A DNA stretch of 21,234 nucleotides from Jimgerdemannia flammicorona (taxonomy: Eukaryota; Mucoromycota; Endogonomycetes; Endogonales; Endogonaceae). The position numbers and the translations under genes were made by a program. Of the stretch, positions 526 through 21,234 are shown in pieces; positions within the stretch are counted from its first letter, which is position 1, and each line of letters begins with the position of its first letter. The stretch covers positions 1-21,234 of the forward strand of contig RBNI01001700.1 of NCBI GenBank assembly GCA_003990745.1. The letters are read 5' to 3'. The notes below the pieces were generated by a model. That model saw nothing but the letters and a program-made list of their open reading frames with translations. It did not search any database and had not been told where the DNA came from.

Positions 526-539
526 AAGCTATACTCATT

Positions 540-2035: not shown

Positions 2036-2450
2036 TAAAATTATGATCACTACTGATGTGTTGAATTTTGCCATTAGAGTAGTCCTGTTACAAGATAATA
2101 GCAAAGGATACTGTCCTATTGCTTTTGAGTCCTGCAAGTTGACCCCAACTAAACAAAAGCTAGCCACCTATGAGAAGGAACTACTAGTAATAATATATTC
2201 ACTAGACCACTAGTGATGCTATCTAGAAGGTATTGAGTTTGATATTATTACTAACCATCAATCCCTTAAACATTAACACCCAATCTACTCTGTTATATTT
2301 ATAAGCCAAGTGGAGCCTCAAGCTTCAAACCTTCAACCTGATGATCATCTACAAGTCTGGCAAGACACTTATAGTACCAGATACCTTATCAAGATGCCCA
2401 GACCTCACCACAATCATACAAGTTACCTTGGCATTAGAATTCCTAGACCA
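2036..2450 (+). pseudogene. gypsy pol remnant: RNase H domain
   Basis: After another frame change near 2,035 the gypsy-type RNase H is readable from about 2,046: ITTDVLNFAIRVVLLQD corresponds to the first catalytic Asp region (usually TDAS...GAVL.Q), and TYEKELLVII carries the catalytic Glu. The third key position reads FDIITNHQSLK where the family has TDHQSL, so Asp has become Asn. The frame shifts again after about 2,272; the following segment (QTFNLMIIYKSG, PDTLSRCPDL) is the usual tether leading to the integrase. This domain would degrade the RNA strand of the RNA-DNA hybrid during reverse transcription; here it is inactive by its stops and by the lost Asp. Confidence 0.82.
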
Positions 2451-2500
2451 AATCAGATAAGCTTATAAAGAAGACACAGTTACCACTAGAGTTTTTTCGA

Positions 2501-3870
2501 ATGAGCTCAAGGATATACATATATACTGTTGAAAACAATCTGATCTATCATCAAGACCAAGTCTATCTATCTGAAAACATAAACCTATACTATAAGGTTT
2601 TGCAAGAACACTATGACTCTCTCCTTACCAGTCATTTGAGAATTGAGAAGACTGTCAAGAACATTCAATACCACTACTATTGGCCAAGCATGGTCAAGGA
2701 AATCAAGAACTATGTTACCAGCTGTGATCTATATCAGCACAATAAGTCTATCAACTAAGCACTAGCTGGTTTGCTACAACTACTGCCAATTTCTACCAAG
2801 AAATTCAAGTAAGTTACCATGGACTTTGTAACTCAACTACTATGAACTCAATCTGATACTGATGCTATTATCATATTTATCAACTGCCTGACTAAGACTA
2901 TGGTTGCTAAACCAACCACTGTCAATATTATTGCACCTAAGATTACAAGAATCTTCTTCAAGTCCATCTTCTATCATTATGGCCTACTATGAGTAATTGT
3001 CAGTAATCATAACCCTAAGTTTATCAGTTACTTCTAGTAAACTCTCTTCAAGACTCTGAGAACCTAATTAGCTATGTCTACTATCTTTTACCTACAAATA
3101 GATTGACAAACTAAGCACATAAACAGAACTCTAGAAAAAATGCTTAGAAACTATATTTCTTATAAGTATGATAATTGGGACTACTACCTGACTTATATAG
3201 AGTTTGTATATAATAATACTATCTAATCATCTACTGATCTTTCCTCTTTCTGGCTACTTCATAGTTAAGATTCTGAGACTCCTACAAGTCTATTCTCTTT
3301 TAAGAAAAATAGTTAAATACAAGTCTTTACTACCAAGAGCCTTATAGATAAAATGAATGAACTATTCAAGATTGCCACTGTAAATTTTCAAAAGGCTCAA
3401 TAGTATCAAGCCAAGTATGCTGACAAGAAATACTATGATATCACTTACACTGTTAGAGATCAAGTTCTACTGTCTACTGAGAATCTTAAGATACAATCTC
3501 AAGTTAACCATTCTTTAAATAAGTTCCAATCTAAGTATATTAGACCTTTCAAAATCACTGAACAAGTCTCTGCATCCTCCTATCACCTCAAGCTACCTGA
3601 AACTATAAGAGTATATCTAGTTTTTCATATATTATACCTCAAGGCCTAGAACCAGTCACTGCTCTACTCTGGTCAAATTCTTAAGCCATCAGTCTCTGTG
3701 ATTATTGAACACCATATCAAGTATAAAGCTGAGAAAATCCTTAACAAATGAATCTGCTATCACTATTCTAAATATCTAGTCAAGTGGATAGTCTACTCTG
3801 AATATGATATTATCTGAAAACTGCTGGTCAATCTTAAGAACTCTCAAAATCTAGTTTAAGACTTTGAGGT
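2501..3870 (+). pseudogene. gypsy pol remnant: integrase with C-terminal chromodomain
   Basis: A single frame with many stops runs from 2,501 to about 3,870. First comes the integrase zinc-binding region (SHLRIEKTVKNIQ, YYWPSMVKEIKNYV, CDLYQHNKS), where the second Cys of the usual CDxCQRNK has become Tyr. The catalytic core follows: MDFVTQLL keeps the first Asp, VIVSNHNPKF has Asn where the second Asp (SDRDPxF) belongs, and QTKHINRTLEKML has Lys in place of the catalytic Glu (QTERxNRTLE). At about 3,686-3,860 lies a chromodomain (KAEKILNK, YLVKWIVYSEYD, NLKNSQNLV), the module that in chromoviruses steers integration to chromatin carrying particular histone marks. One aromatic-cage Trp position (usually TWEP) is now TGA. 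All losses fit G-to-A or C-to-T transitions. Confidence 0.87.
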
Positions 3871-4182
3871 AAAATATATTATCCAATTCCTATAGTGACT
3901 TTCTTGTATTATTGATAATTTATAGCAATAATCAGTGCCTTATGTATCAGAAGTTTACTTTGGGACCCCAGAACTAGCAGAATATTTAATAAATAGAAGT
4001 CTACTGAAATGAAACTACTAGCTAGATTTGAACCTCTCTTAGTTAGTTAGTCTGGTAATAGACCCTCTGCTCTATATAAGGATGGCCAATCTTCACCAAT
4101 GTACTGATATAAGTTTGAGAAATTTTGGTTAAGTATATCTAGTCTTGTATTATCTAAAAACTCAATAAGGATATTAGTTCTT
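3871..4182 (+). other. gypsy 3' untranslated region with a small hairpin
   Basis: Non-coding stretch between the end of pol and the polypurine tract. It contains a self-complementary segment near 4,050-4,064 (GTCTGGTAATAGAC) and, on the minus strand, GGTTCAAATCTAGC (about 4,021-4,034), which resembles a tRNA T-arm/B-box. A CTATATAAGG motif lies at about 4,073-4,082. I see no reading frame. The tRNA resemblance is incomplete because no matching stems close. Confidence 0.5.
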
Positions 4183-4195
4183 AAGGAAAGAGAGA
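4183..4195 (+). other. polypurine tract of gypsy copy A
   Basis: AAGGAAAGAGAGA is a 13-base all-purine run directly before TGTAATAA, the expected position of the second-strand primer of an LTR retrotransposon. Its exact abutment with a TG-starting LTR supports the call. Confidence 0.75.
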
Positions 4196-4494
4196 TGTAA
4201 TAATTTCATAGTTATATTTAGCCTTAGTATATTTTTATATCTTTTAATTAGTCTTTTCTTGTTATTTCTTGAACATTCTACTATGTTCTACCACCTTCTA
4301 CTTATTTAGAAACCTGCTCTTAGTGTCCAGATACTACTAGAACATTTTTGTCTTTCTTTGGTACTAAGTATCTTGTTTTAGCTAGTTATAGAACATTTCA
4401 GAACATTGTAGAACAGTATTAGTCAGCTTTGTCAAGAATCTATTTCTTGGCATTTCTCTTTCTTTCTAAGATTCTTCCAGATTTTTCTTTCAGA

Positions 4495-4509
4495 TCATAT
4501 ATAAATATC
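4495..4509 (+). promoter_or_regulatory. TATA-like box in the LTR
   Basis: CATATATAAATATCC lies about 300 bp into the LTR and about 20 bp before an AATAAA motif, the usual U3/R arrangement in fungal gypsy LTRs. It would drive transcription of the element; RIP may have made it more A+T-rich than the original. Confidence 0.5.
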
Positions 4510-4524
4510 CTTGTTTTCTGTCTG

Positions 4525-4530
4525 AATAAA
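4525..4530 (+). promoter_or_regulatory. AATAAA polyadenylation motif in the LTR
   Basis: AATAAA in the context TGAATAAAGCTCAG, shortly after the TATA-like box. Its position fits the R region of an LTR, where the element transcript would be cleaved. Confidence 0.45.
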
Positions 4531-4657
4531 GCTCAGAATATTTTTCTTCCAGAAATCCTTTAAGAATACTTGAATCTTTAAGTATCTCATTGAGCTACTT
4601 TAGACCAATTAGAACTTCCAGATTTAGCCACTTTCTCTTAAAGAAACTAGAACTATT

Positions 4658-5054
4658 ATAGAGGGAATCAGATTCTACCTACTATTCTATATTTTTTGGA
4701 AGGTTTTTTTCTTTACCTATTACTCTATTTAGGATAGTAGAGGCTATTCTATTTAGCTTAGATATGATCTTGTATATATATTGGAATTTCAGGTATATAC
4801 TTTTAATTATTAGTATATAATTACTTTCCCCTTAGTAGTAGGAAGAATATAGTATATAGAATAAGGTATAGACTTCTTGTCCTACTATATCTGATATGGT
4901 TGAGCTACTAGACAATAGCTAGCCTAAATTAATGGAGATATAGTACTCAGAGAGAGGATGGGGGAGGGTTTTGACCTATATAGTCTAGGTTTTCTTCCAA
5001 TAAAAATTCATAAGATATAAAGTCTATTAAAAAAAAAAAAAAAAAAAAAAAAAA
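4658..5054 (+). mobile_element. Poly(A) retroposon, RIP-mutated 3' fragment
   Basis: This aligns nearly without gaps to 19,450-19,842, the 3' third of the young retroposon, and ends in 26 A (5,029-5,054). The shared tail includes a 28-bp identical block (4,908-4,935 against 19,700-19,727) and AATAAA at about 4,999-5,004. Against the young copy it shows many G-to-A and C-to-T changes, mostly at CA and TG. It has no coding capacity. It is 5'-truncated, as is usual for target-primed insertions. I find no convincing target-site duplication flanking it. It interrupts or abuts the end of the gypsy LTR. Confidence 0.85.
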
Positions 5055-5948
5055 CCAAGAAGGAGAAAAAAACTCAAATATATTTTCATATTAGTATAAT
5101 ATATACATATCAGAATATCTTCTTGAGTTTATAATAATAAATATTAAACTTTTTAAATATAAAATTGAGATTTTTAAATAAAAAAAAAAGTTATATCTTT
5201 GAGGAGAAATCTGTAGAATTTGGTAAAATCAATATGAATTTTCTATTATTACTACTTAAAAGATTAAAATGTGCTAATTCTATATAACTTTAAGATAGCA
5301 GATTTAAGAAACTGAGATAATAATTATAAAAATTCTACTTGACAAGCTTATTGAAGTCAATACTCAATAAGTATCAAGCTTATTATAGTAAATACTTAAG
5401 CTTATTATAGTGAATGCTTGAGCTTATTGCAGTAAATGCTTGAGCTTATTGTGGTGAATGCTTGAGCTTATTATACTGAATACTTAAGCTTATTAAAGTG
5501 AATACTTATATATAAAGCATTGATCATAATATCATTAATAAGTACTAATACTAATTAAGCTTAAATATAATAAATATTATAATCAATACTTATATACTAA
5601 GGCTTAATACTTAGACTTTGAATAAAAAAGAGCTATAACTATTATAAAAAACCCTTTACTACTACTCTTTATTACTATTCTTTATCTAAATACTCCAAAC
5701 CCTCTAAACTCTCTAAATACTCTAATCTCACCTATCTCACTTTTTTAATTTATACTCTAATCTTATCTATTCCACTATATCTTAACTAAATCTACACTTT
5801 ATATGTAGAAATTTATCTTATCTTACAATCTATATTCAAGTATAGAATATACTAGTGATAACTTATTATCTTTCTCTTCTTAAAAAGAGAGAAATAAAGT
5901 CAAAAAAAGACTATTTAGACTAGAAATATATAATAAAATTTGAACATA
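5055..5948. other. A+T-rich spacer without genes
   Basis: No reading frame or domain is recognisable. The stretch is strongly A+T-rich with no CG seen. It contains the 22-bp minisatellite at 5,376-5,507 and a pyrimidine-rich section at about 5,655-5,790 made of short TACTCT/CTCTAA-like words. It may be old, fully decayed repeat sequence. Confidence 0.6.
5376..5507 (+). repeat. 22-bp minisatellite, six units
   Basis: Six head-to-tail 22-bp units start at 5,376, 5,398, 5,420, 5,442, 5,464 and 5,486. The consensus is (A/G)AGCTTATTATAGTGAATGCTT, with a few substitutions and no length change. A diverged extra unit lies at 5,344-5,365, separated by about 10 bp. Differences between units are mainly G/A, consistent with transition decay. 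Confidence 0.85.
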
Positions 5949-6012
5949 CTTCTTTCTCTACTACTTTATTAGTCACAAGGTTTAATAGGCAATCTTCGGA
6001 GTCCTCTTTCTA
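5949..6012 (+). mobile_element. Scrap of the 5' end of the poly(A) retroposon
   Basis: About 60 bp match 18,652-18,712 of the young retroposon. Shared words are TTTCTCTNCTAC, GTCACAAGGTTT and TAGGCAA(C/T)CTT, then GAGTCC. The copy is mutated (GGTTTGG to GGTTTAA, CCGGTC to TTAGTC). After about 6,012 the sequence becomes LINE copy 1 read backwards. So only the 5' tip survives, in direct contact with the LINE. Confidence 0.65.
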
Positions 6013-9000
6013 TCTATCATCAACCACTCTCATCTAGCCACTCTTATCCCCAATATCAACTATTGTCTCTCCTCAAATACAAAAAGCCAATATTCTATCA
6101 GCCTAATCCAAATTACCAGTATCTATTCTAGTATCAGTCACTTATCTCCCAACCCCTCCACCAGCCTCCTCTAGAGGTCACCCCATCTCCCTTCTACCAT
6201 CAACTCTGATAGTTATACTCCCAGCTATATCTCAATCTCCCTTCAAAAGTCCCCCATCACCTCATACTCCCCCAGCCAATATTCAGGAATCTGTACTACT
6301 CCTCTATCTTGCTTGACATTCAGACACTCCTCATACTTCTGAGTACTCTCTTCTACCAAATAGTCCATCCAGTAGTTCAATATAATATTATATTATAGAA
6401 CTCTCCACCATATCATATAGAACTTGAGAGATCTATCTAGCTACCTACTTATCCTACTGCTAAATATGATTTTACTCCCACTCCTCACCAATCTCTACCC
6501 CCTGCTATGCTTTAGGCCACAGATCTCTCTCATACTCTTGAAGGCACTCTATGCTATTCTCTAAGCAGAAATTATTAGTTGGTACTCTGCCCAACAGAAG
6601 GTAGTCCCATCTTTATATCTGGGGTCCCCACTTCTCTATCTCCTCTACCCCTTCATCACCTCTCCATTGGAGACCAATATAGTGTGCCCCATTAGCCACT
6701 CTCCACTAAAATCCCCTATACTATATCCTCAGACTCTCCTCTAAAGCCACCAGAGAGAGAAAATCTCCAGTCATATCTCAAGGAGAAAATTTGGCCTCCC
6801 ATACTCTCTGCATAAGTGGAATCTACTCCCTACCCCTTAGCTTGCTTGCTCACTTCAGCCACCATGCTCTCAAGTAGTAAAAACACTTGGAAAAGTCCAT
6901 CAGACCCAGACCTCTCTAGTCTACTGATCAGGTCAACACCTTCCAGCCAATCTAGCTCTACTGCTCTGCCCATATCTAGGTTCTGGCTATCTTCAGTAAA
7001 TTCTTGATCATCTATGTCAGAAAGTCTAAGTGATATTCTAGATACTACAGCTTAGACAGTCAGTAGACATTCAATACTATTATCCTTTCTGTCAGAGAAA
7101 TATAGTAACTACTCTACCCTAAGAAAGTACTTCCTTATATAGCTAATCTCTGCTCCCACTACTCACATGGTAGTAAGGAGCCATATATTGAAAAATAAAT
7201 TCCCAGATACTGAACAGCCTCTCTCACTAGAACAATTGTTCTAATTACATCATCTCCTACTATTTCTCTTCCTAGCGTCAAGGTCTTATACTTATACTAG
7301 TTGAGCTTGGTACCTGAGTACCCCTCATACTATTCTATGATATCTTTCAGTGCCACAATATCTGCAACTGACCCCAGCCTAACCACCATATCATTAGTGA
7401 AGGCCCCACCTTCCAATTAACCTCTAGAATGTCCAACCCCCCTATCTTTCACCATATCCTATCCAAAAGTGGCTCTAGAGATAGCATATACAAAATTAGC
7501 AACAATGGATCTCCTTGTAGCACTTCTCTACCCAGAGGGAAAGAGACCCCTTTGTGTCTATTCACTATGATTACTATCTGACTCTCTTTCAGCAGACTGA
7601 TCAAGGCCTACTAGACCCCATAGGGGACCTCTATATACTTTAGTACTCTCTCTAACCATATTCTTCAGACTCTGTTATAGGCCTTCTCCTGGTTCAGAAA
7701 CACCAGTCAGCTATCTACTCCAGTAGTGTGGGTACTCTCAATAACACTATGCACTCAGGCTGTCTCATCTCTGATTAGATGTCCCCTTATAAATTCTCTC
7801 TACTCAGTCCCCAGGACCTATTGGGCCACTCTCTGCAGCCTAGCTACCAGAACCTTTGTAACCAGTTTGTGATCTATATTTAGGAGCATGATCAGTCTCC
7901 AGTTCTTCCACTTCTTCCTCCTCCCCTTATTCTTAAACAGTAGAGCCATAAAACCCAAGCTCTGTTCTCCAATTTATACTCAAGAGTCTATTACTTTATT
8001 ATACATTGCTGTCATTTCTTCTAGAGTCAACTCAACTTCTACCATCCTTTTCCAGAAGTCTCACTGTAAGCTATTCTCCCCTGATATAGTTCCAGAGCTC
8101 ATTATTAGCAGAACTTACTAAATCTCCTCTCCTTAGACAGTAGTACCAAAATTACCTAAGTCTGCTGCCAGATCAGAGTGCTATTCCTCTAAGTACTTAT
8201 CAATGTTCAACATCCCCTCTCCTCTATCCTCCTCACTCTATAAGTATCCCTACTGCTGGCTCAGCTGGTCCAAAATCTCTAGTATTCCAACCACTAACTC
8301 TCCTGCCTCATCTAGTACTTCCTTCTACTGCTGTCAGACTTTTCTTACCTATAACAACTATAACAAAAACTTGGTTGGCTGCTCTCCCTCCTCCAGACTC
8401 TACCACTGCAATCTGGCTGCTATGTACTTAACTTATAGATCTTCTTCCTGCTGCAGAACATCCTTCAGCTCCTTCACCTCAAGCCTAACTCCTTCATTCA
8501 CCAGATCTGCCTAAGATACCAACAATCTTACAAATCTTTAAGAGACCCACCTCATTTGCTTCTTCCTCTGGGTACCTTACACTCTTTCTGTCTCTCCCCA
8601 ATTCTGTTATATCTCAGACTTCAATTGTACTCAGTGATCCCTAATCTCCAGTCCTACTGCTCTCCATCTAAGAATCCTAGAGTTAATATCTATCACTCAT
8701 GCCTCTTACAGAGAGACCTCCCCTAGTAAAGAAATATTTAGTCACCAATATCCAGGCCCCTCCCCATCTCTCCCAAAATACCTCTCTTCTAAAAGACCCC
8801 AGTGATCTGACCATAGACCCCAAATAGTCTCCAAAGACCTCCAGATATCAACTCCCCAGTAGTCAGCAGTCAACATTCAGTCAATTCTCAAGCTAAGCCC
8901 TGCTACTCAGTAGGTAAAGACCTGATGATCCCCCCATCCAAGCCTCCCAGCATCTACTAAAGAGCTCAAATATTTGACCTCCTTCCAGGCTTCAATATCT

Positions 9001-9486
9001 CTACTTCTGCCCATTATCTCTCTATCTCTATCAGTTTGGTTGATTATCCCATCCTGTATCATGTTAAAGTCTCTCCCTAGGCAATCAATCTCTATCTCTA
9101 CCAATACTCCAGACTCTTATAGCCCTTGTATCCATTCTACTCTCTCCTCTCTTTTTGCCAGACAGTAATATGACCCAACTGTCAAAGCCCTTCAGCCTAG
9201 TCTCTTCCAAATGCCCCACACTACCCTGCTCTCCTAATGTCCAATATCTCTCAGGTCCTCCTTACTCCTTCTGATTAGAATGTCTATACATCTATGTCAG
9301 ATAGCTATACTATCCCATTTCTTTGTCTGGTCCTGACTACATATCTAGGTCTCTATCACACCCAATATCCTGTAGTAAAAACAAATCAGCATCTGTCCCT
9401 TTCAGCCATCCAAAGATATTTTGCTACCTCACCACCTCTCAGAGCCCATTGACATTCAGTAAAAAGATTTTAGTTATACTGTTCAT
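6013..9486 (-). pseudogene. LINE copy 1 ORF2: endonuclease - reverse transcriptase - Cys/His motif
   Basis: The start is ATG at 9,486 (MNSITKIFLLNVNGL), which is also seen in copy 2. The N-terminal AP-endonuclease-like domain shows LLNVNGL, LFLLQDI, then RDFNMIQDG at about 9,080 (family GGDFN; the first Gly is now Arg) and WSDHW at about 8,806-8,820, so the Asp-His pair is kept. This enzyme nicks target DNA to prime reverse transcription. The RT follows: FLNQEKAYNRVW near 7,700, REVLQGDPLL near 7,540 and FTNDMV at 7,390-7,401 in place of the catalytic F/Y-A-D-D. A region like copy 2's FTECLHYLRVWWLK lies near 6,860, and the C-terminal motif near 6,290-6,340 has lost a Cys to Tyr (GEYEV). In-frame stops and shifts make it non-functional. 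No RNase H was recognised. Confidence 0.83.
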
Positions 9487-9521
9487 ACTGAATAATATTA
9501 TTTGAAGCACAGCCCTCTACT

Positions 9522-10197
9522 CTACAATTCCATACTTGTTGTATCTCCAGCAATATTCAGGTTTCTCTCTGCCTCCAGTTCATCTGCCTCTCTCTGTTGA
9601 GCCTCCAATGTCTTCAGAATCTCCTGACAATCTACACCATCCACAGTCTCCATCTCTATATAATACTTCTTGCACACCATCTGCCACTTTGCCAACTCTT
9701 TCCTTGGGTCCCACATATAATCAGCTCTGTCATTCACAATCACCAGAAGTGCTGCCTCCCTGGCACCATCAATCTGATATGTCTTAGTCTCTAACAATGC
9801 TACTATTATCTCATCCCCAAGTTTCCATGGCACCTCCTCTCTGTACAAGATTTCACCCCAGTACCTCTCACTTAGTACTCAGAAGTCCTCTCCCCCTAGC
9901 TCCTTAGCTGCCACATTCTCTAGTATCTTCTACAGTAATTTCTCCTTGGTCTTGGTCTCTACCACTCTCTGGACCACCCCCACCCCTCCTTCCACCTACC
10001 TCCCCCTCTGTATTTCTCCTCACTGACTCATCTCAATCCTCCTCCAGCACATTCTGTAATTCATCATCACCTCCAGCCCCACCTAGCACTCCATACTGAG
10101 GACCCTCACTATCCGCCATCTTAGTATCCTCTACAATGATATTCTGCTCAATATCCTCCTCCACTTCTGGGGTCCTCTTTGGTCTTCCCTCCTTCTC
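9522..10197 (-). pseudogene. LINE copy 1 ORF1 (5'-truncated)
   Basis: The last 108 codons (9,848 to 9,522) are open. Similarity to copies 2 and 3 extends further upstream. The visible parts are an acidic and Gly-rich N-terminal part (MADSEGPQYGVLGG begins at 10,119, but the frame is open upstream through GRPKRTPEVEED), a shift near 9,960, then KILENVAAKELG and a charged helical C-terminus ending EAERNLNIAGDTTSMEL. The Glu/Lys/Gln-rich segment at about 9,540-9,620 could form a coiled coil. No CCHC zinc knuckle is visible, unlike ORF1 of many Tad/I-type elements. ORF1 products usually bind the element RNA; for this family that is inference. ORF1 stops 35 bp before the ORF2 ATG. Confidence 0.72.
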
Positions 10198-10698
10198 AAC
10201 CAGAATCTTATTAAAAATCTCAAGATTCTCACTAAGTCTGTATCTAAGAATTACAGCATAGTACTATAGATAGTATACTATATCCTATCAAGTCAATTGT
10301 AGTCAAACTATTCATTAAGATTCAGAAATATTAGGAATAAGTAAACTTCAAGATTATACTACTAAGAGATTATAATTTGATATTAGAAAAACTCTGACTT
10401 ATGAAACATAATCTAAATATTAATTAGTATAAGAATGAAGTTACAATACTTCAAAAAGGAGTCAATATCACCATCAAGACAGATAAGTCTATGAACAAAA
10501 CCCAGATTGCAATACTGTTAGCAATATAATATAAGAAAGTACTCAAAAAGGCAGTACATGCTTTTGTTGTAATAGTTTGTTCCAAGAAGTAAGACAAGAA
10601 GCTATCAATTAATGAAAGTATCAAGTTACTACTTGAAGAATTCAAGAATGTCTTTCCAGAAAAGCTATCTGGCCTATTACTTGTATGAGAAGTTGATT
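10198..10698 (+). mobile_element. gypsy element copy B, 0.5-kb fragment
   Basis: Aligns with gypsy copy A from about 609 to 1,107, that is, from the middle of the protease to the start of the RT (for example the shared AGATTATNA(C/T)(T/C)TGAT, TATAAGAATGAAGT and CCCAGATTGCAATACTGTTAG). Both ends are abrupt: LINE copy 1 on the left and LINE copy 2 on the right. Its stops and transitions differ from those of copy A, so the two decayed separately. No LTR, RT core or integrase remains. Confidence 0.85.
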
Positions 10699-10938
10699 TG
10701 AGAGATAACTCTTTTGGGTATTGCAAATGATCAGGCAGTATATCTGTGGAGGTCAAGGAATGGGCTGGCAAAATGGCAGGTTGTGTGTGAGGAGAACTGT
10801 ACATCCATAAAATTAGTAGATAGAGAGGATTGTATGGAGTTGTTGGTAGCTCTAAATGAATAGTAAGAATTGGAGGCAGAGGCTGAGGTTGAGTAGAACT
10901 TATATTTGGCAGAAGAGAATGTAAGTATGGAATTGTAG
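10699..10938 (+). pseudogene. LINE copy 2 ORF1 C-terminal remnant
   Basis: About 80 codons match the C-terminus of copy 1 ORF1: LLGIANDQAVYLW against LLVIVNDRADYMW, LAKWQVVCEEN against LAKWQMVCKKY, and the shared ending SMEL then stop (10,936-10,938). Two adjacent stops (TAG TAA-like context at about 10,859-10,864) interrupt a Glu-rich, coiled-coil-like segment. No function can remain. Confidence 0.75.
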
Positions 10939-10970
10939 AGTGAGTTCATATCTCCTTAATATTATTCACT

Positions 10971-13900
10971 ATGAATAGTATAACCAATATATTCTCTATA
11001 AATATGAATAGACTTCAGAGAGTAGAGAGATATTGCAATATCTTTGACTGGCTGAGGAAACTGGATACAGATATATTTCTACTTCAGGATATAAGGTATA
11101 AGGTTGAGGTTAATAGATTGAAATAGATGAGAGAGTGGGGGGGAGGGGGGGGGGGGGCAGTGATATGGCAGAAGAAGGTGAGAATATTGGTCAGGAGAGG
11201 GAAGAGAGATATTGGAGACATTGGATATTGAGGGAGCAGATTGGTGTAGGGGTCATGGTAGAGGTCAGGATAGGGCAATATAGTTGTAGATTCTTAATAC
11301 TATCTGGCAGAGAGGGAGGCTAGAGTGGAATGGATATAGAAACTGTAGGACTCTGGTACTCTGGTAGGGGCTGGGGTAGACTGCCTGAGTGGGGACTTTA
11401 ATATGGTCCAGAATTGCAGACTGGACAGGACAGATGACAGAAGAGGAATATCAGGAAGATGGAGGACTGGGAGGAGATTGAGAGGCTTGGTGCTCTGGTG
11501 AATACTGTGAGACTATAAGGTGACAAACATCAGATGTACACACATTGGGCAGAAGGGCTGGGCTTGAGGATTGATTGAATTTTGACTGCCAAGTGCTGGG
11601 GAGAGATGGTCTGAGAGAGAGTAGAGGTGGAATAGTGCCCCTGGTCAGATTATTGGAGTATTTAGAGAAGAGAGAGGTTTGGAGGAAGTAGGGAGGGACC
11701 TGGACATTGGCATCTGAACTCCTCTCTATTGGATGAAGCTGCTCTGTGGAACTCTTGGGAGAGGAGAGTTAAGTCCCAGATTGTAAAGTGGAAAGAGGTA
11801 GGCCTGAGTATTGGGAACTGATGGTGCAGACTGAAGTCTAAGACTCAGTATTTTTAGAGGAATGCAGAGAAGATATAGGGTACTTAGAGATGGAGGAGTA
11901 TCTGGTAGACATCACAGCAGTTGGAAAGTTTGCTGATATGATAGACAGAACTGTTAGAAGAGAAAGGAGTAATGAACTGAAGAGTTTGGCAGATCAAGCT
12001 GGAGGTGGCCAAGCTATAGAACTTACTGAGAAGAGAGAAAGATATACAGATGAGAGCATTGGTAGCTAGGCTGAGATGGTGGGGACTAGAGGAAGGAGAG
12101 TGACCTACTAAGTTTCTATTGAGGCTTCTCAGAGCAAGGAGAGTAAGGTATTGGTGGGATAGAGTATTGGATGAGAAGGGCAAGATAGTGAGAGGAGTGT
12201 AGGGCATACTAGAATAGCTGAGTGACTATTAGAGTAGACTTTGGAGTGAGGAGGAGAGAGGGGAGGATGTGTTAGATATTGAGCAATATCTGGAAAAGTG
12301 GTATCTAGCTCTAGCTATAGGTCTGGAGGAACTTGAAGTACCAGTTCAGTGGGAGGAAATTCTCCAGGTTCTGGCTTCAATAAGCCTGGACACCACTCCT
12401 AGAGAAGATGAGCTGTCATAGATGGCATTAGTTGAGGAGGTACTAGAGGAGATAACATAGATGTATAATGAGATTATTGGTTCTGGAGCATAGATTGGGA
12501 GCCAGTAGTTGGGGCTGGTGACTCTGTTATATAAAAATAAAGAGAATTGGAAAAACTGGAGGCTAATTATACTTCTTGACATGGACTGTAAGATGGTGAT
12601 AAAGGTTCTAGTAGCCAGGTTGTAGAGAGTGATTCAATAGGTATTAGGGAAGAAGCAGAGGGGCTTTGTAGAGAGATGTCTTATTAGAGATAGCACTGTA
12701 TAGGTCTATGGCATTATTGAAGAAGTAAGGGCTACAGGAGTAAATGGCCACCTAGTGTTCTTGGATCAGGAGAAGACCTATGACAGGGTCTGGAGGATTT
12801 AGCTTGATATGGTACTATAGTATATTAGTATTCTCCAGGGCATTCAATGCTCTATTATCAGTCTACTGGAGGGGGGCCAGATAGCTATTTTGGCAAATAG
12901 TCACAGGGGAACCACCTTTTCTCTAGGAAGAGAGATGCTACAGAGGGACTCTCTATCTCCTATTCTTTATACCTTTACTTTGGAACTATTACTGGATAGG
13001 ATCAGGTACAGAGTAAGCAGTTTGGATATTCTCAGAGTGAATTGGAAGGTGGGATCCTTTGCAGATAACATAGTGGTTAGATTGGGATTAGTAGAAGATA
13101 TAGCTGAACTGAAGAGGGCAGTAGAATGATATGAGAGGTATACTGAGACAAAGCTCAATTAGTATAAATGTGAGACAATGGTACTTAGTAAAGAAGTGGT
13201 AGGGGGAGACATCATTGGAATAATTATCCCTGCTAGAGAGGTAGTTTGATACCTAGAAATCTACTTCTTAGTATATGACTCCTTGCTATCCAAGGAGTGG
13301 TGAGAATGTAAGCTGGTAGAATGGAGCAAAGTGCTAGTAGGCTGGTGTGGTAGATACATTTTACTAGTGGGAAGAGTAATAGTGCTGAATATATACTGGA
13401 TGCCAAAGCTATAATATCTTAGGTACCATCTTAACTTTCTGAAATAGGTGGTTAAGAGGCTCTTGAAGATGGTCTGCTCATAGCTCTAGACTGAGATATA
13501 TAGCCAAATCAGATGAAAGGTGCTGACAATATCTGTGGGCTGTGGAGAACTTAGTCTAGTAGACTTTACTGAATGTCTACACTACTTGAGAGTATGGTGG
13601 CTGAAGTGAGCAGGTGAGCTGAGGGGAGGAAAATAGATACTCCTAATGTAATATATTTGAGAGGTATAAATATCACCCCAGAGAGGTTCTGGCAATTTAC
13701 TCTCATTGGTGGTACTAGAGAGAAGCCAAAAGATATACTATAAAGACTTTTGGTGGGGTGTGGTTGATGGAGCTCACTTTATTAGTATCTGATAAAGGGG
13801 TGAGGAGGGGGAAGAGAACTGGGGGCCTCAGATGTAGAGGTGAGACCATCTTCTGTTGGGGGATAGTCAGGTGGAGAACTTTAGTCTTGAGGATAAAATG

Positions 13901-14592
13901 GAGTATCTTGAAGGATAGAGGAGAGATCTATAGCTAGAGACCTGGCAGGGGGTCAGTATTAGTAAAGGGTGGGACTGAGCTGGTATGTGGTCATGAAATA
14001 AGATAGTGGTAAGGTAGCTCTCCCAAGTTCTGGGTAGTGTGGTGGAGGGCAGAATGTGATTCTGAACTTCCAGTCAGGGCACTTGGTGAAAGGGGATACC
14101 TTTGATTGTAAGGAATGCTATAATATTGGGCAAGAGAGCAGGGTGGTATAGATCCTAGAATATTGGTTAAGAGAGTGTGAGAGCTTAGAGATTTTCTGAA
14201 AGAGGATTGAGCAGAGATTAGAAGTGGCTGCTCCTATATCAGGAGGAGGTGGGCAGTGGAGAGTCCTGCAGTCATGTCTGGTAAGTGGTGTAGAGGATGA
14301 GTGACTGACAGTCAGATAGATGATAGCTATGTGGGTTGAACTTATAGAATACTAGCAGAGTATCTTTGAGGAGGGTCTCAGGTTGGCAGTTGGAATAAGG
14401 GAGACAAGGTGAGAGTGGTTGATATTAGAGCTTCTGAATAGATGATGGGTTGGGTGGGGGCTTAAGAGAGGGAGCCAGAAGGGGCTGGTGAGACAGATTG
14501 TAGTGAAGAGTAGAGGGAGGATTGAGATATCTGATAAAAGAGTATTCTGGATTAAGGATGGGGGTGAGAGGGTCCTATGTGAGATAGGATAG
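10971..14592 (+). pseudogene. LINE copy 2 ORF2: endonuclease - reverse transcriptase - Cys/His motif
   Basis: Starts MNSITNIFSINMNRL at 10,971. The endonuclease shows IFLLQDI, and GDFNMVQ at about 11,391-11,411 is intact, but the SDH motif seen in copy 1 reads SER near 11,607. A G7-A-G13 run interrupts the domain at 11,137-11,157. RT motifs are FLDQEKTYDRVW (about 12,757-12,792), GREMLQRDSLSPILY (about 12,926-12,970) and SFADNIVV at 13,055-13,078: the catalytic FADD has become FADN. After the RT come GRVIVLNIYWMPKL and VDFTECLHYLRVWWLK, blocks typical of L1-like ORF2 between RT and C-terminus, then FDCKECYNIG and WLRECE (about 14,103-14,175), the Cys/His motif. A coherent frame runs on to a stop at 14,590-14,592 (FWIKDGGERVLCEIG). 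Stops at many Trp/Gln positions show it is dead. Confidence 0.83.
11137..11157 (+). repeat. G-tract (7 G, A, 13 G)
   Basis: A run of 20 G with a single A inside the endonuclease region of LINE copy 2. Copies 1 and 3 do not have it at the matching place, so it probably arose by slippage after insertion. Such a run can form a G-quadruplex; it may also be misread in length. Confidence 0.8.
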
Positions 14593-14657
14593 AGGGGAGA
14601 TACAGTATATTATTATATTATAAATAAGAGAGGTAATAAAGATACAGTCCAAGTAAC

Positions 14658-14660
<3 letters not shown>

Positions 14661-14713
<53 letters not shown>
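14661..14713 (+). repeat. Poly(A) tail of LINE copy 2 (53 A)
   Basis: 53 uninterrupted A, 20 bp after AATAAA (14,635-14,640). It marks the 3' end of a retrotranscribed polyadenylated RNA. Its length may vary or be misassembled. Confidence 0.9.
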
Positions 14714-14716
<3 letters not shown>

Positions 14717-15123
14717 AGATGATAAATGGCTTAACTGCTGAGGAGCTAGGGGAGATGGACTTATAGGTGATTAGTGAGAAACAGTGAAAGTATATATTGA
14801 GAGAAAATGGACTGATAGAGAAACTGAAGGCCAAAGTACTGACTATATTGCTAGAGAAGGAAGATTATGAGGTTGATAAGGCTAAAGAGACTGAATTGAT
14901 AGTAATTACAGAAGAGAGAGCTGCTTTCTGGTTTAAGCAATAGTATGGCCTACAATATTGATAGGAGATATATAAGAAATACAAAGAGGATATAGAGGAG
15001 AAGGATGATAAGGCAATTGCTAAGATTCTGGCTAGACTAGAGATAAGAGAGGCTGAGGTAGTAGAGGCTATAATAAAGCATAGTCTAGACTTGGCTCAAG
15101 AGGAGATGAGTATAGAGCTGTGA
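14714..15123 (+). pseudogene. LINE copy 3 ORF1 remnant
   Basis: One frame with few stops runs from 14,719 to the stop at 15,121-15,123. It matches copy 1 ORF1: LTAEELGEMDL against AAKELGGEDF, ITEERAAFWF against IVNDRADYMW, and the shared ending EEMSIEL against DTTSMEL. The protein is Glu/Lys-rich (EKEDYEVDKAKETELI, EIREAEVVEAI), consistent with a helical, coiled-coil-like region. No zinc knuckle. Its start is missing. Confidence 0.72.
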
Positions 15124-15130
15124 GGAGTTG

Positions 15131-18100
15131 GGTTTACTCTATAATATTTTCTCACTAATATCAATAGCTTGAGGAGCTCTATGAGATATAGGAATATTTT
15201 TTCTTAGCTGAAAGGGTTGGAGGCTGGTCTTTTTCTTTTGTAAGATATATACTGAGAGGAGGATTTGACTAGATAGAAGTAGATGTAGGAATAGAGTGGT
15301 ATTGCAGTTTGGAGGAATAAGATTAGAATTCTGATATATATAATAAGACAAGGTGAACTCTATAAGATTGGGGGCTAGAATGGCTGATTAGTTTGGAAGA
15401 AGTAATATAGATCAGAATAGAAGTCTGTTATTATTGACTCATATTATTGCCCAGTAGTGTAGAGTGAGTATATTGAGTGATTAGATAGGTTTCTTAATTG
15501 TAATATACTGACTAGAGCAGAGGTGATATAATTGAGAGAAATTTCAACATAATCTGGAATCTAGTGTTAGATAAAACTGATCAAAGGAAGAGTACTAGAG
15601 GCCATAGTAGAGATCTGAACACTTGGGAGGATATAGAGAGACTCAGCTTCTTAGTGGATACTGGTAGGATAATATAGAGTAATCATAGGATCTATATCTA
15701 TTGAGTGAGTGAACTTAGAATGAAGATTGGCTGGATACTGATGGCTGACTGCTGGGAGTTAGATGTTTGAAAGGATTTAGAGATTGTGTGATATATATCT
15801 ATAATCAGACTATTGGAGTTTATTGAGATATAGTTAGTTTGGAGAGTAAGAATGAGCCTGGATATTAGTAACTCAATTTCTTCTTACTGACTAAAAAAGA
15901 GTTATAGAATACTTAAGTTAGAGATATTGAGTTGAAAATTGATTATTAGAACCATAAAGAGCTTCCAATAGAGATCTACTGAGTGAGACTAAAGAAAGCT
16001 ACTAGAGTATATTGGAGAGAGATTAATCAGTTTACTGAAAAGGAGTAGCAAAGGAGAGTGAGGTGGACTTCTGACCAGTTGGCTTGATTACAGATAGTAT
16101 AGGCTAAATTATTAAGTCAGGAGATAGTGGAAGATTGGAGATTAGTGTGAGCCAAGTTAGAGGTAGTAGAGTTGTAGAGAGTATTGAGAGGGGAGAAGAA
16201 GACTTATGTAAGAGAAATAGTAGCTTGGTTGAGATAGCAGAAGCTTGAGAAAGATAAGCAGTCTTCTAAGTATCTGTCATAACTACTTTAGGTGAGAAGG
16301 GTGAGACAGCAATAGGATAGAGTATTGAATATAGAGAATATACTAATATATAGTACCCAGTAAGTCTTGAGTTTTCTGAAGGAGAGATGGAGAGATCTGT
16401 GGAGTGAGAAGAAAGAGAGCACTGATGCTGAGGCTATAGAGTACTTCCTGAAGAATTGATAACTCCTACAGATAGATAACCTTAGAGATTTTGTTCTATT
16501 AATTAAGAAGGAGAAGATTCTATATATCCTGACTGCTACAAAATTGGATATAATATTGGGTGAGGATAGTCTGTCCTAAGACTTCTGAAAGAAGATATAT
16601 AGTGGGGGTCTCTGAGATACTAGGGGAGATGATAGTACTTTGTAATTATATTCTCATATCTGAGAAGTGGGTTGAAGAGCAAGATCTTAGTCTAGTGATA
16701 CTGCTGTTCAAGAATAAAGGCAAGAGAGAGAATTGGAAAAGTTAATAACTAATTATACTTCTGGATATAGACAGAAAGCTGGTCATGAAAGTAATTGTTA
16801 TGTAGCTATAGAGAGTGGTCCAATAGATACTAAGTGAGGAGTAATGGGCTTTGTTGGGGATCAACTTATTAAAGATAAGATAGCTTGAGTATACAGTATA
16901 ATTGAGAGGATAAGAATTAGTGGACTGAATAAGAGGTTGGTCTTCTTGGATCAAGAGAAGGCTTATGATCACATTTGGAGAGTTTGGATAGAAAAGATGC
17001 TAAACAGAATTAGTATTTCTCAGCAATTCTAAGTTTTAATAATTGGTCTGCTGGAGGGTAGCCAGGCAGTACTTTTGTATAATAGTTATTATGTCACATT
17101 CTAGTTAAAGAGAGGTATTTCTCAGAGAAACCCATTGTTCTCTATTCTGTATACTCTGTTACTAGAGTTATTGATAGATAGAATTCATCATAAGATAGCT
17201 AGACTCTCAATTTTTGAAATAGTATAGAAGGTTGGAATCTTTGCAAATGATATAATATGTAGTTAGTCTTAACTCAGTTGCTGATATTAGAGTACTGAGA
17301 GAAATGATGGAATAGTATAAGGAGTATTTTGGAGCAAAGCTTAACTAGTATAAATATGAGATAATAGTATTGAAAAATAGTCTAATAGATAGAGATATTA
17401 TTGATACAATTATCTCTATAGGAGAAGCTGTATAGTATCTAAACATTTTTTTATTAGTATATAGATCTGTCTTACCTAGGATATAGTAGGAAAGGAAGAT
17501 TATTGATTGGAGGATAGCTTTTCAAAGCTAGAGGAGATATCATATCTCTCTAGTAGAGCAGATATTAATACTGAATATTTACTAGCTACTGAAGTTGTAG
17601 TATCTGACTTATTACTTGAACTTTCTGATCTAGATAATAAAGAGATTGTTGAAGTTGGCTAAGGAATAAATCTGAACTAAAAAATAATATCAGATCAGTT
17701 GAGAGATTTTGGTATCATTAGTGAATCAAGGAGGTCTTGATCTGGTGGACTTTTCTAAGAAGCTATATTATCTGAGAGCTTAATGGTTGAAGTAAACTAT
17801 TGAATTATAGGATAGAGAATAGATACTGCTAATGTAAAAGGTCTGAGAGATGAGGTTTTTCCACTAAGGCTTCTTGAGTGATCTGCTGTTATTAGTTAGA
17901 CTGAATGGTAGTAGATATTTATAGTATAAGAGCTTCTGATAAAAAGTAGTAAATAGTGTATACTATATTAGACTATGCTGATATGGTACTAAGAGAGAAA
18001 TATATTGGGTTTCAGTAATATAGTAATAGAATAGATTATTGTTGAGTGGTTTCTCACTGGTGAACTTTGATATTAGTACTGAAATAGAGTGCTAAAGAGG

Positions 18101-18400
18101 AATAAGATAGGATTTGTAATCTATAAACTGGTAGATAGCTGAGATTAATGAGAATAGGACTGGGTAACTATTTGATTCTAGAGTGCTGAGGTGCAGTAAT
18201 GACTTTCTCCCAAGCTCTGAGTAATATAGTGGTATTTGTTGTAGAGAAATATTATGTTGAACTTTTGGTCAAGTTACTTAGTAGATGGTAGGTACTTTGA
18301 TTGTAAGAAGTATTATAATATAAAGTAGGAGGAGAGCTTTATATAGTTATCTGAACATTGGCTGAATAAGTGTAAGATTTTTGGAGACTTCTGGATATAT
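15131..18400 (+). pseudogene. LINE copy 3 ORF2: endonuclease - reverse transcriptase remnant
   Basis: The ATG is lost, but NINSLRSSMRYRNIFS and LKGLEAGLFLL match the start of ORF2 in copy 1. The endonuclease motif GDFN reads RNFN near 15,535, and SRDLNTWEDIERLSFLVDTGR follows. The RT is recognised by LFKNKGKRENWK (about 16,700), FLDQEKAYDHIW (about 16,939-16,974), the RGISQRNPLF-like block near 17,110 and IFANDI at 17,237-17,254: the first catalytic Asp is Asn. Further on come LSLVDF-like and LRAXWLK-like blocks (about 17,735-17,800) and a damaged Cys/His motif (FDCKKYYN, about 18,298), where the second Cys is Tyr. Stops at expected Trp and Gln codons are frequent. Confidence 0.8.
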
Positions 18401-18630
18401 AGTCATCTGATCAGTCATCTGACCTCTCTTTTATTAATACTATATCTTTTTAGTTCTTATAGATCAATTTCTCTACTAGATTTAACTATTTTTTTTTTTT
18501 CTTAATTATTATATAATATCTTCTTATTATATTTTATATTCTCAGGTCTCTTTTACTCCTATCTCTACTCTCTATTATTACTATTATTACAAAGTTCCTA
18601 GGAATCTCTAATCTAAATTCTCTCTTTACT
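18401..18630. other. A+T- and pyrimidine-rich spacer
   Basis: No gene or domain visible. Contains 12 T at 18,489-18,500 and runs of TATT/CTCT words. It separates the broken end of LINE copy 3 from the young retroposon and supplies the latter's insertion site. Confidence 0.6.
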
Positions 18631-18646
18631 AATCTTTTAGATTTAA
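18631..18646 (+). repeat. Target-site duplication, left copy
   Basis: AATCTTTTAGATTTAA, identical to 19,841-19,856 on the other side of the retroposon. The first two A of the right copy overlap the poly(A) tail, so the certain duplication is 14 bp. Confidence 0.88.
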
Positions 18647-19842
18647 CGTCTCCCTTTCTCTGCTACCTTACCGGTCACAAGGTTTGGTAGGCAACCTTCC
18701 GAGTCCCCTTTCCCCTATTATTACCCCCTCTACCTCGGGTTGGTTTGCTATGCCTGCATGGGCATGGTGGGAGGAGGGCAATGGTGATAAGTTGCCCCTT
18801 TATCAGTGTCAGATTGGTATCTTCTCCACTTTTTCGCGGTTTCTAGTGCCTTCAGCTGCATCTGGAGTGCATCCGTTTTGGTGCAGTGTCTTCTTCCTTT
18901 TGCCGTCACCAACAAGGTGCTGTCTCGGTGTGTCTCGGGCTACGTAGGGAGTTGGCTGACCTTGGGCGTCAAGTGCTCAGTGTAGGTTACCTGCAGGTCC
19001 TCAGTGCCTATAGTGGGGCCCTCTGGCTTTGGCGAGCTTCCTGGCGAGCATGGTTCTGGCATAGGTGACTGCTTTTCGGGTGATGTCGGGATGAGAGGAG
19101 AGATGGCCATCACAGATAGGAGGAAGGGCAATAACGGTGAACCAGTAGGGTGCCAGGCTAGGGGCAGTCATCAGGGCTGGGGCGGGTGCTGCTTCAGTGG
19201 GGCCTTTTGATTGGTGTGGCATGGTTAGGTGGTGGGTGACACTCTCGGCTTCTTTTGGCAGGTAGCGGGGTGAGGCCCCAGTCATCAGGGGGGGTCAGGG
19301 GGCCCGAGGCTACCCATTTCAGGCGTCTTGGCTGCACTCAACTGGAACCGGGAGCTGACATGGCAATGTGATTGAGGCCCGCAGGCTTGAGTAGTGGGGT
19401 ATTGAGGGTTTCCTCCCGCCTCACGTGTAAGTCCTTTACTCACCTCAACTGGGAGAACCAGGTCCTATCCACTGTGTTGTACTTTGATGAGGGTTTTTTC
19501 TTTGCCTGTCATTCTCTTTAGGGTGGTAGGGGCTATTCTATTCGGCTCAGGCATGGCCTTGTACATACGTTGGGTTCTCAGGCATGTGCTTTCGGTCATT
19601 GGCATATGGTTGGATTTCCCCTGGTGGTAGGGAGAGCATGGTGCGCAGAATGAGGTGCAGGCCAACATAGGCCCTGCTGCGCCTGGCATGGTCGAGCTGC
19701 TAGACAATAGCTAGCCTAAATTAATGGGGGGGCAGTGCTCGGTGGGTGGTGGGGGAGGGTTTTGGCCTATATAGTCTAGGTTCCCTTCCAATAAAAATCC
19801 GCGGGACATGAGTCCGTTAAAAAAAAAAAAAAAAAAAAAAAA
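18647..19842 (+). mobile_element. Young non-autonomous poly(A) retroposon, about 1.2 kb, not RIP-mutated
   Basis: Starts at CGTCTCCCTTT after the left duplication and ends in 24 A (19,819-19,842), with AATAAA at 19,790-19,795. It is bounded by a perfect 14-16 bp target-site duplication, the mark of target-primed (LINE-type) insertion. It keeps abundant CG, CA and TG, in sharp contrast to all sequence to its left. Several ORFs of 60-94 codons exist on both strands and overlap (for example 18,684-18,947 plus and 19,001-19,285 minus), but none shows a known domain, so I treat it as non-coding. The AATAAA suggests a Pol II transcript rather than a tRNA-type SINE; I see no clear A/B box. Two mutated relatives are at 4,658-5,054 (3' part) and 5,949-6,012 (5' tip). 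The mobilising enzyme is unknown; the LINE family here is one candidate. Confidence 0.87.
19790..19795 (+). promoter_or_regulatory. AATAAA polyadenylation motif of the retroposon
   Basis: Lies 23 bases before the poly(A) tail and is kept in the mutated copy at about 4,999-5,004, 24 bases before its own tail. This spacing is what an mRNA-like polyadenylated transcript would show. Confidence 0.65.
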
Positions 19843-19856
19843 TCTTTTAGATTTAA
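19841..19856 (+). repeat. Target-site duplication, right copy
   Basis: AATCTTTTAGATTTAA, directly after and partly merged with the poly(A) tail; identical to 18,631-18,646. Confidence 0.88.
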
Positions 19857-20180
19857 TAATTTCTAACTTACTATTTTTTAAATATTAAATAACTTCTATT
19901 AAAATTTATATTAAACTTATCTGATATTCTACATATCTTACAAAATAACATAAAAATAGTTAAATGTATTATTTATCATAAAAGAATTTATCTGTAACTT
20001 AGCTCTCTCTAAATAGTTTTTAGATATTTCCTAGTTTACTGAAGAGAATGTAGTAAAAAAAAAAACTTAATAAAAAAAACTCACTCAGTAAAAAGGAATT
20101 TAGTAAAAAAATACTCAAAAGAGAACTTAGTGAAAAAGAACTTAGTAAATGAGAACTCAACAAAGAAAGGAGAACTTGGA
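19857..20180. other. A+T-rich spacer with short A-rich repeats
   Basis: No gene visible. From about 20,041 to 20,175 it is built of degenerate direct repeats of about 14-17 bp related to GAACTTAGTAAAAAA. CG is absent until about 20,190, where composition changes. Confidence 0.6.
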
Positions 20181-21234
20181 TATAAGCTCACCATGTGGCT
20201 GCGCTTCTCGAAATCGAGACTATTAAGGTTGGTCACGTGATGTGGTACTAGATGTCTTAATACCCAAGTGCATCATAATACCCATAATTACAATACTTAA
20301 TAATTCCAAGTTTTACTTTTAAATTATGTAAGAATTCTATAATATATCTTTCACAGAATACTTTAGATTTGACATAATAGATTTCAGCATCCAGCAGCAC
20401 TTCTATTTAGGTTCTGTGATGTAGATCTTAGATTGGTGATAGCGGTTAAGGTTAAGTTGCCCCCATCGGGTGTTACGCAATCAGGTGCATGGTTCCGAAG
20501 TAGGTTACATTGATAAAGTTAATGGGTGTAGACCTTAGCAGCATCAATTATCTTATTAGTACGGTAACGGATTTCCACGTAAAGGGCCACATTGAACTTC
20601 GGCGATGGAGGCGGCGAGTATTGTTGAACTCAGAAAAGTTGCTTAGAGTTCGAAGGAGAATGGCAACTCGCCATGTTGAATAGGGTTGTGCGTCTGTGTG
20701 GAAAAAATACTAAAATGGTATCGATATTCAGACTGACTCGTGATTTGACCCCCACGAGGTCTGATTCCAATTTCAGAAATTCAATTACCGACGGGACGAG
20801 TACTGGAGAGATGTTGTGCACAAGCGACAAACTCTGAACCACACAAGTTGACAGTCCGCCAAGTCCCCGCACATCTGCTCGGGCACTAGTAGCGTAGTCG
20901 AGTGAAGTCGGCTGCCAAAATTTAGCGATGGCGTTCAACAAAGCAATCATGGCTCTTTCCTGCATTCACATACGACTCGTTCCATCTGACCATATCGAGA
21001 TTTCTATTTATGTATTTTTTTTTACATTTCCCTACCTCGTGGATATTTTACATCTAGAGCTTCGTGTTACATTCTGCTAACTGCATATAGCACGATTTCT
21101 CCATTAAGGACCTTTTTTTGCATTCCGGACCCAAACCGAGAAAACCCTGCTCCTAATGTCATTCCATATTATTCCACCCCAAATACTATAAAACGACTCC
21201 TCTACTGCACATGCCCACAACATCCCCGACACCC
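20181..21234. other. CG-containing sequence, probably host DNA; no recognisable gene
   Basis: Base composition and CG content return to normal here, so this is likely unique host sequence next to the transposon island. A minus-strand frame of 111 codons (20,965 to 20,630) is open but shows no motif I recognise, and I would not call it a gene. Visible sites are CTCGAAATCGAG-like symmetry near 20,207 and TCACGTGA at about 20,233 (an E-box-type palindrome). At the far right CTATAAAA (about 21,186) precedes an ATG at 21,211 that stays open to the window edge; it could be the start of a plus-strand gene, but the 25-bp spacing is short for a TATA-driven start codon. Confidence 0.5.

What the first reader, a model, noticed from the sequence alone, without database searches (positions are those of the whole stretch)
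18631..19856. Young, mRNA-like non-autonomous retroposon with perfect target-site duplication
A 1.2-kb element with 24-nt poly(A) tail, AATAAA 23 bases before it, and a 16-bp duplication (AATCTTTTAGATTTAA) sits unmutated between heavily RIP-mutated repeats. It has no recognisable coding domain and no obvious Pol III promoter, so it is neither a normal LINE nor a tRNA-SINE. It looks like a family of retroposed noncoding, Pol II-type RNAs, possibly undescribed. Two older relatives in the same window show that the family has been active more than once. That it was mobilised by a LINE in trans is inference.
Basis: partly seen in the sequence, partly recalled or inferred. Interest (0 to 1): 0.75.

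Follow-up and report, generated by a model that had tools for sequence, protein, structure and literature searches.

The report
mRNA-like noncoding retroposon in a fungus
A 1.2-kb stretch of fungal DNA that makes no recognisable protein has been copied, very probably through an mRNA-like RNA, to over a thousand places in its genome, most likely by borrowing the copying enzyme of an L1-like jumping gene; few such elements are known in fungi.

Summary
The insertion at 18,647-19,842 is real: exact 16-bp target duplication, 24-nt poly(A), AATAAA 23 bases upstream. Six other places in the same genome match the joined flanks across the junction, i.e. carry the target repeat without the insertion. 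It belongs to a dispersed family: 1,264 exact hits of a 19-mer tag, 0 for the reversed control. Of 20 flanked copies parsed, 15 have 12-18-bp duplications, against 3 of 380 mismatched pairs. No ORF exceeds chance, no Pfam domain; internal TTTT runs are conserved, AATAAA in 32 of 34. So: a long, noncoding, Pol II-type, non-autonomous retroposon. An abundant L1-like LINE in the same genome has poly(A) tails and 14-17-bp duplications in 6 of 11 copies and is the likely helper; no shared 3' tail beyond AATAAA/poly(A) was found. A shared 5' head is only suggestive. Corrections: the copy is not unmutated (52 transitions, 1 transversion against the family majority), and C-to-T decay ranks CpG>CpA>CpC>CpT, unlike classical RIP. 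Closest described kind: Eg-R1 of Blumeria; SVA is the animal parallel. New member of a known kind; host unnamed; expression untested.

The parts
18631..18646 (+). left target-site duplication AATCTTTTAGATTTAA
   Evidence: sites without the insert
18647..19842 (+). retroposon, subfamily A, full length
   Evidence: 40 scored of 2744 candidates
18647..18649 (+). CGT, extra bases between TSD and the family start CTCC(C)TTTCTC; other copies have other short extras
18653..18700 (+). 5' terminal 48 nt with suggestive similarity to the 5' end of the genome's L1-like LINE
   Evidence: suggestive; not significant with transition-tolerant scoring
19766..19781 (+). CCTATATAGTCTAGGT block near the 3' end; TATATA kept in 35 of 36 copies
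19790..19795 (+). AATAAA, kept in 32 of 34 copies
19819..19842 (+). poly(A) tail, 24 nt
19841..19856 (+). right target-site duplication
4701..5053 (+). older, C-to-T-decayed relative: last ~350 nt with poly(A)
5952..6030 (+). older relative: 5' head only, abutting a LINE in reverse orientation
10707..14713 (+). decayed L1-like LINE copy with poly(A) (candidate helper family)

Best explanation
It is a full-length copy of a ~1.2-kb non-autonomous, noncoding retroposon. Most likely steps: an internal 5' promoter starts an mRNA-like RNA near (C)AGCTCCTTTCTC (inferred); Pol II transcribes it and it is cleaved and polyadenylated after AATAAA (inferred from the conserved AATAAA, the conserved internal TTTT runs and the absent A/B box); the protein of the abundant L1-like LINE of the same genome takes the poly(A) RNA in trans, nicks the target and reverse transcribes from the poly(A) (inferred from matching anatomy); this leaves poly(A) and a 12-18-bp target duplication (shown). 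Afterwards C-to-T mutation erodes the copies (shown; agent unknown).
For: Exact TSD; six matches across the joined flanks; 15 of 20 parsed copies with TSD score >=10 vs 3 of 380 controls; tags: 1,264 exact hits, and with up to 3 mismatches 889 (5' tag) and 1,617 (3' tag), controls 0; 8 of 10 sampled copies begin at the same 5' end and one is 5'-truncated with a 10-nt TSD match; longest ORF 84-102 aa in 11 copies vs null median 95 and 95th percentile 156; no Pfam match in 6 window ORFs; eight TTTT runs kept in all copies or all but one, AATAAA in 32 of 34, no A or B box match in the window copy; no tRNA and no Rfam match at gathering score. LINE: RT clear (RVT_1 3.8e-28), endonuclease piece weak (Exo_endo_phos 6.8e-4, below its cut-off); many listed homologues carry PF03372, PF00078 and PF13966; AATAAAG + poly(A) tails; TSD score >=10 in 6 of 11 LINEs (14-17 nt; control 1 of 110). 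First base after the A run is G in 14 of 23 retroposons and 8 of 11 LINEs, background 0.42 (p 0.053 and 0.040).
Against: No transcript data, so Pol II and polyadenylation are inferred. No 3' similarity to the LINE beyond AATAAA/poly(A) (p 0.49, 0.26); an L1-type helper would not need one, but no positive tie to this LINE is proven. The target-base preference is weak. 5 of 20 parsed copies gave no TSD; for one (L005) the tail was not read, and one search shows a 13-nt match there. 5 of 11 LINEs gave none either. Only two LINE copies were read nearly whole, neither with fully open frames; other LINE families may exist.
Confidence: 0.8

Rival explanations
1. A LINE-derived short element: the retroposon keeps the LINE's 5' promoter head and a poly(A) end, as RIME/NARTc do with ingi/L1Tc.
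For: Ungapped, end-to-end colinear similarity of the first 48 nt: 21-27 identities, p 0.0002-0.033 over 15 pairs; gapped tests p 0 of 2000 to 0.097 over 12 pairs; for one pair, 0 of 204 windows of the retroposon body score as high.
Against: Not significant with transition-tolerant scoring (p 0.28, 0.22); 21 of 42,372 window positions reach the same count in a fixed register; the 3' ends do not match; no consistent body match (in one search LB scores above all 60 shuffles, but at a place not shared by its relative LA, p 0.17).
Confidence: 0.2
2. Processed pseudogenes of one host noncoding RNA gene rather than a self-propagating element.
For: mRNA-like, no promoter proven; poly(A) and TSD also fit retropseudogenes.
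Against: Over a thousand copies, 8 of 10 sampled with the same 5' end, and two subfamilies that share both ends: a pattern of several active sources. No source gene was searched for.
Confidence: 0.1
3. Classical Pol III SINE of unusual length.
For: Non-autonomous, TSD, poly(A).
Against: No tRNA or Rfam match at gathering score (one search lists three far below it), no A or B box, eight internal T4-T6 runs kept in nearly all copies, 1.2 kb long.
Confidence: 0.03

Closest known systems
Eg-R1 / BG_Non-LTR retroelements of Blumeria graminis (PMC6022598: passages and one section read)
   Same: Short, non-autonomous, thousands of copies, no A/B box, internal poly(T) stretches, AATAAA, Pol II-type; family members conserved in their 5' region
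   Different: Eg-R1 insertions lack a genomic poly(A) tract and are ~657 nt, in a genome with Tad1 LINEs (PMC10648671, passages); here poly(A) of 12-65 nt, 1.2 kb, an L1-like LINE. Sequence similarity could not be tested (no repeat library held)
SVA / LAVA of hominoids (PMC7353768 and PMC2666806: passages read)
   Same: Non-autonomous, poly(A), 14-16-bp TSDs in an L1 assay, internal Pol III terminators, L1 helper
   Different: No VNTR in the copy tested; no hexamer repeat seen by reading; L1 dependence unproven here
RIME/NARTc with ingi/L1Tc, sharing the Pr77 head (search listing and abstract starts only)
   Same: Possibly a shared 5' head between short element and LINE
   Different: Shared head only suggestive here
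L1/Tx1-type LINEs (name recalled; domain make-up)
   Same: The candidate helper here: RT, a weak endonuclease match, poly(A), TSD of ~15 bp
   Different: The retroposon itself has none of these ORFs

Membership tests
LINE-mobilised (TPRT) retroposon | TSD of variable length at both ends | tested here: met
   15 of 20 parsed copies, controls 3 of 380
LINE-mobilised (TPRT) retroposon | Insertion into a previously continuous site | tested here: met
   six of 13 non-self matches cross the junction, by coordinates; their letters could not be fetched
LINE-mobilised (TPRT) retroposon | 3' poly(A) and some 5'-truncated copies | tested here: met
   (1 clear truncated copy of 10 sampled)
LINE-mobilised (TPRT) retroposon | Movement depends on a LINE protein | not testable with these tools
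   needs a retrotransposition assay
Classical SINE | Pol III promoter boxes or tRNA/7SL/5S head | tested here: not met
Classical SINE | No internal Pol III terminators | tested here: not met
   eight T4-T6 runs conserved
Eg-R1-like Pol II retroelements | Noncoding, AATAAA, no Pol III signals | tested here: met
Eg-R1-like Pol II retroelements | No genomic poly(A) tract at insertions | tested here: not met
   poly(A) of 12-65 nt in 19 of 20 parsed copies; the 0 for L005 is a parsing failure
Eg-R1-like Pol II retroelements | Polyadenylated transcript seen | not testable with these tools
   no RNA data held
Eg-R1-like Pol II retroelements | Sequence similarity to Eg-R1 | not tested
   no copy of Eg-R1 or repeat library held
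SVA | Hexamer repeats, Alu-like part, VNTR, SINE-R | tested here: not met
   Tandem Repeats Finder on one subfamily-B copy (L069) shows no array inside the element except poly(A); hexamers by reading only; Alu-like and SINE-R parts not tested
Internally deleted LINE | RT/endonuclease remnants or LINE body homology | tested here: not met
   one unconfirmed LB score
RIME/ingi type pair | 5' head shared with the LINE | tested here: inconclusive
   for; against

The most novel reading that the evidence does not exclude
A fungal counterpart of SVA that has also captured the 5' promoter head of its L1-like helper: a noncoding Pol II RNA that competes for the LINE's protein by poly(A) alone and uses a promoter with a shared ~48-nt start, in a lineage outside the powdery mildews.
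Probability: 0.2. Interest if true: 0.6.

Novelty: new member of a known kind. Interest (0 to 1): 0.42.

Why it matters
Pol II-type noncoding retroposons that I know of are few (SVA in apes, Eg-R1 and kin in Blumeria). A family with poly(A), mostly full-length copies, sites without the insert and an L1-like LINE in the same genome gives a further fungal case and a system in which poly(A)-only parasitism of a LINE could be tested. The copies also record a C-to-T mutation process with an unusual context order.

Tried and rejected
Rejected: classical SINE; coding element; internally deleted LINE; a LINE sharing the 3' tail (for two copies; by eye in the LINE tails). The similarity of LB 130-405 to the retroposon body (above all 60 shuffles) was set aside because LA, a relative, has its best match elsewhere and not beyond chance. 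Led nowhere: plasmid collection (no match); PF14529 in the genome (0 matches, 2 candidates scored); host naming by RPB2 gave only kingdom level; two Dnmt1-like fragments are too weak to name a methylase. A fine-root-endophyte genome paper (PMC12574304, passages) does not fit this assembly (37 Mb there).

Dropped rows: one search was given 40 loci; 36 went into the alignment used (L065, L066, L069, L071 left out). One search was given 22 copies; L007 and L067 were not parsed; 11 of 12 LINE pairs parsed. Of the ten LINE 5' pieces, L092 held no 5' end.

Full report
Observation. The element, its 24-nt poly(A), AATAAA and the exact 16-bp duplication are in the sequence as described. When the two flanks are joined and one duplication is kept (junction duplication at query 232-247 of 491), the genome holds 13 non-self matches. 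Six run across the junction: C5310 (query 4-410, 67%), C6106 (123-410, 69%), C1142 (156-410, 69%), C2313 (180-410, 69%), C317 (182-410, 66%) and C269 (188-410, 68%), with target lengths within about ten bases of the query lengths; C3310 (230-410) covers only the duplication and the right flank, and six others lie to one side. These are sites of the same repeat without the insert. Their letters could not be fetched, so the single TSD copy was not read there.

Family. In the own genome (134.8 Mb, 7,754 contigs) one search scored 40 of 2,744 candidates; the 39 other than the window copy are 91-93% identical and nearly full length (there is one further partial match at 80%). A 19-mer of the 3' part has 1,264 exact hits; a 33-mer of the 5' part has 889 and a 35-mer of the 3' part 1,617 with up to three mismatches; the reversed controls have 0. 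Many copies stop at a contig end at their 3' end. Of ten copies taken from the tag list, eight start at the same 5' end, L066 matches only from position 107 and L065 is 5'-truncated with a 10-nt duplication. L069, L071 and L065 form a second subfamily: the first two share about 560 nt at the 5' end, and all three the last ~140-160 nt, with the window type; the middle does not match by blastn except for a ~75-nt block that is doubled, though a heavily gapped, transition-tolerant alignment can be drawn through it.

Hallmarks. In 20 parsed copies, 15 have duplications with score 10 or more (12-18 nt, some with one mismatch); among 380 mismatched flank pairs 3 do. Between the left duplication and CCTTTCTC there are extra bases; CAGCT is the commonest (4 of these 15). 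Such extra bases are known at LINE-made 5' junctions (general knowledge).

Coding and transcription. The longest ORF in eleven copies is 84-102 aa; 500 first-order random sequences give a median of 95 and a 95th percentile of 156. Six window ORFs have no Pfam match. Eight internal T4-T6 runs are kept in at least 35 copies, AATAAA in 32 of 34, and the window copy has no A or B box match, no tRNA and no Rfam match at gathering score. A full-length Pol III transcript is therefore unlikely; Pol II is inferred, not shown.

Age and decay. Against the column majority of 36 copies the window copy shows 52 transitions and one transversion in 1,169 positions; the other copies show 33-191 transitions and 0-19 transversions. 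C-to-T change at C-majority sites is 33.6% at CpG, 8.4% at CpA, 4.4% at CpC and 1.3% at CpT. The relative at 4,701-5,053 shows 17/20, 32/45, 22/64 and 3/43. So the copy is young by transversions but not unmutated. RIP is described with a CpA preference (PMC12543289, passages); here CpG leads. The majority state is not the ancestral one, so these rates are rough.

Helper. LINE RT sequences are very common (6,003 first-look candidates, 150 scored). Two copies were read: L085+L083 and L086+L084, each about 5.75 kb from 5' start to poly(A). The first has open stretches of 677, 268 and 741 aa, the second is more broken. RVT_1 is clear; the endonuclease match is weak (19.9 bits, cut-off 24.5). Of the listed homologues many, including the second and third best, carry PF03372, PF00078 and PF13966. 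The name L1/Tx1-like is recalled from that make-up. LINE tails read AATAAAG...AGTCCAAGTGACTAT(A)n with small variations; 6 of 11 parsed LINEs have duplications of 14-17 nt (one with a mismatch), control 1 of 110. Duplication lengths and the base after the A run (G in 14 of 23 and 8 of 11, background 0.42, p 0.053 and 0.040) agree with one endonuclease but do not prove it.

Ends compared. The first 48 nt of LINE and retroposon are similar in register (p 0.0002-0.033 over 15 pairs; gapped p 0 of 2000 to 0.097 over 12 pairs), but transition-tolerant scoring removes the signal (p 0.28, 0.22), 21 of 42,372 window positions do as well, and the 3' ends are not similar (p 0.49, 0.26). The pairs are not independent. 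I keep a shared head as a lead only.

Host. An RPB2 exon is fungal; over the same core it is 89% identical to Dentiscutata (131 aa), 81% to Rhodotorula and Marasmius, 80% to two Coemansia, 76% to the ascomycete Gallowayella, 74% to Naganishia and 72% to Racocetra. This weakly hints at a fungus outside Ascomycota and no more.

Known relatives. Eg-R1 of Blumeria is called a probable member of a poorly characterised class of non-autonomous, Pol II-transcribed retroelements, without Pol III boxes, with internal poly(T), an AATAAA and a 5' region shared in its family, but without genomic poly(A) (PMC6022598, section 19). SVA is the animal parallel (PMC7353768, PMC2666806; passages). In the listings (titles and abstract starts) of the searches on fungal non-autonomous retroposons I recognised no other Pol II-type fungal family; the library is limited and no repeat database could be searched, so this family itself may already be catalogued.

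Noticed in passing
window 1-18,500: Repeats with CpG observed/expected mostly near 0, next to 20,001-21,234 with 0.9-1.0; C-to-T decay order CpG>CpA>CpC>CpT, not the CpA order of classical RIP.
   Followed up: partly
L090, about positions 300-480 of its reverse complement: By eye, a LINE 5' end that follows a decayed copy of the retroposon, as if inserted into it.
   Followed up: no
window 5,952-6,030: Retroposon head directly abuts a LINE in reverse orientation that lacks about its last 270 nt compared with L052.
   Followed up: partly
window 5,355-5,507: 22-bp tandem repeat, six overlapping copies.
   Followed up: no
window 531-3,244: Decayed Ty3-like region (by eye from the ORFs), about 70% identical to the RT-bearing loci L037 and L048.
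   Followed up: no
L091: Short TTAGGG tandem stretch inside repeats, possibly a telomere-like remnant.
   Followed up: no
G000 contig ends: Many contigs stop in or near the poly(A) of the retroposon or of the LINE, so copy counts from this assembly are probably low.
   Followed up: no
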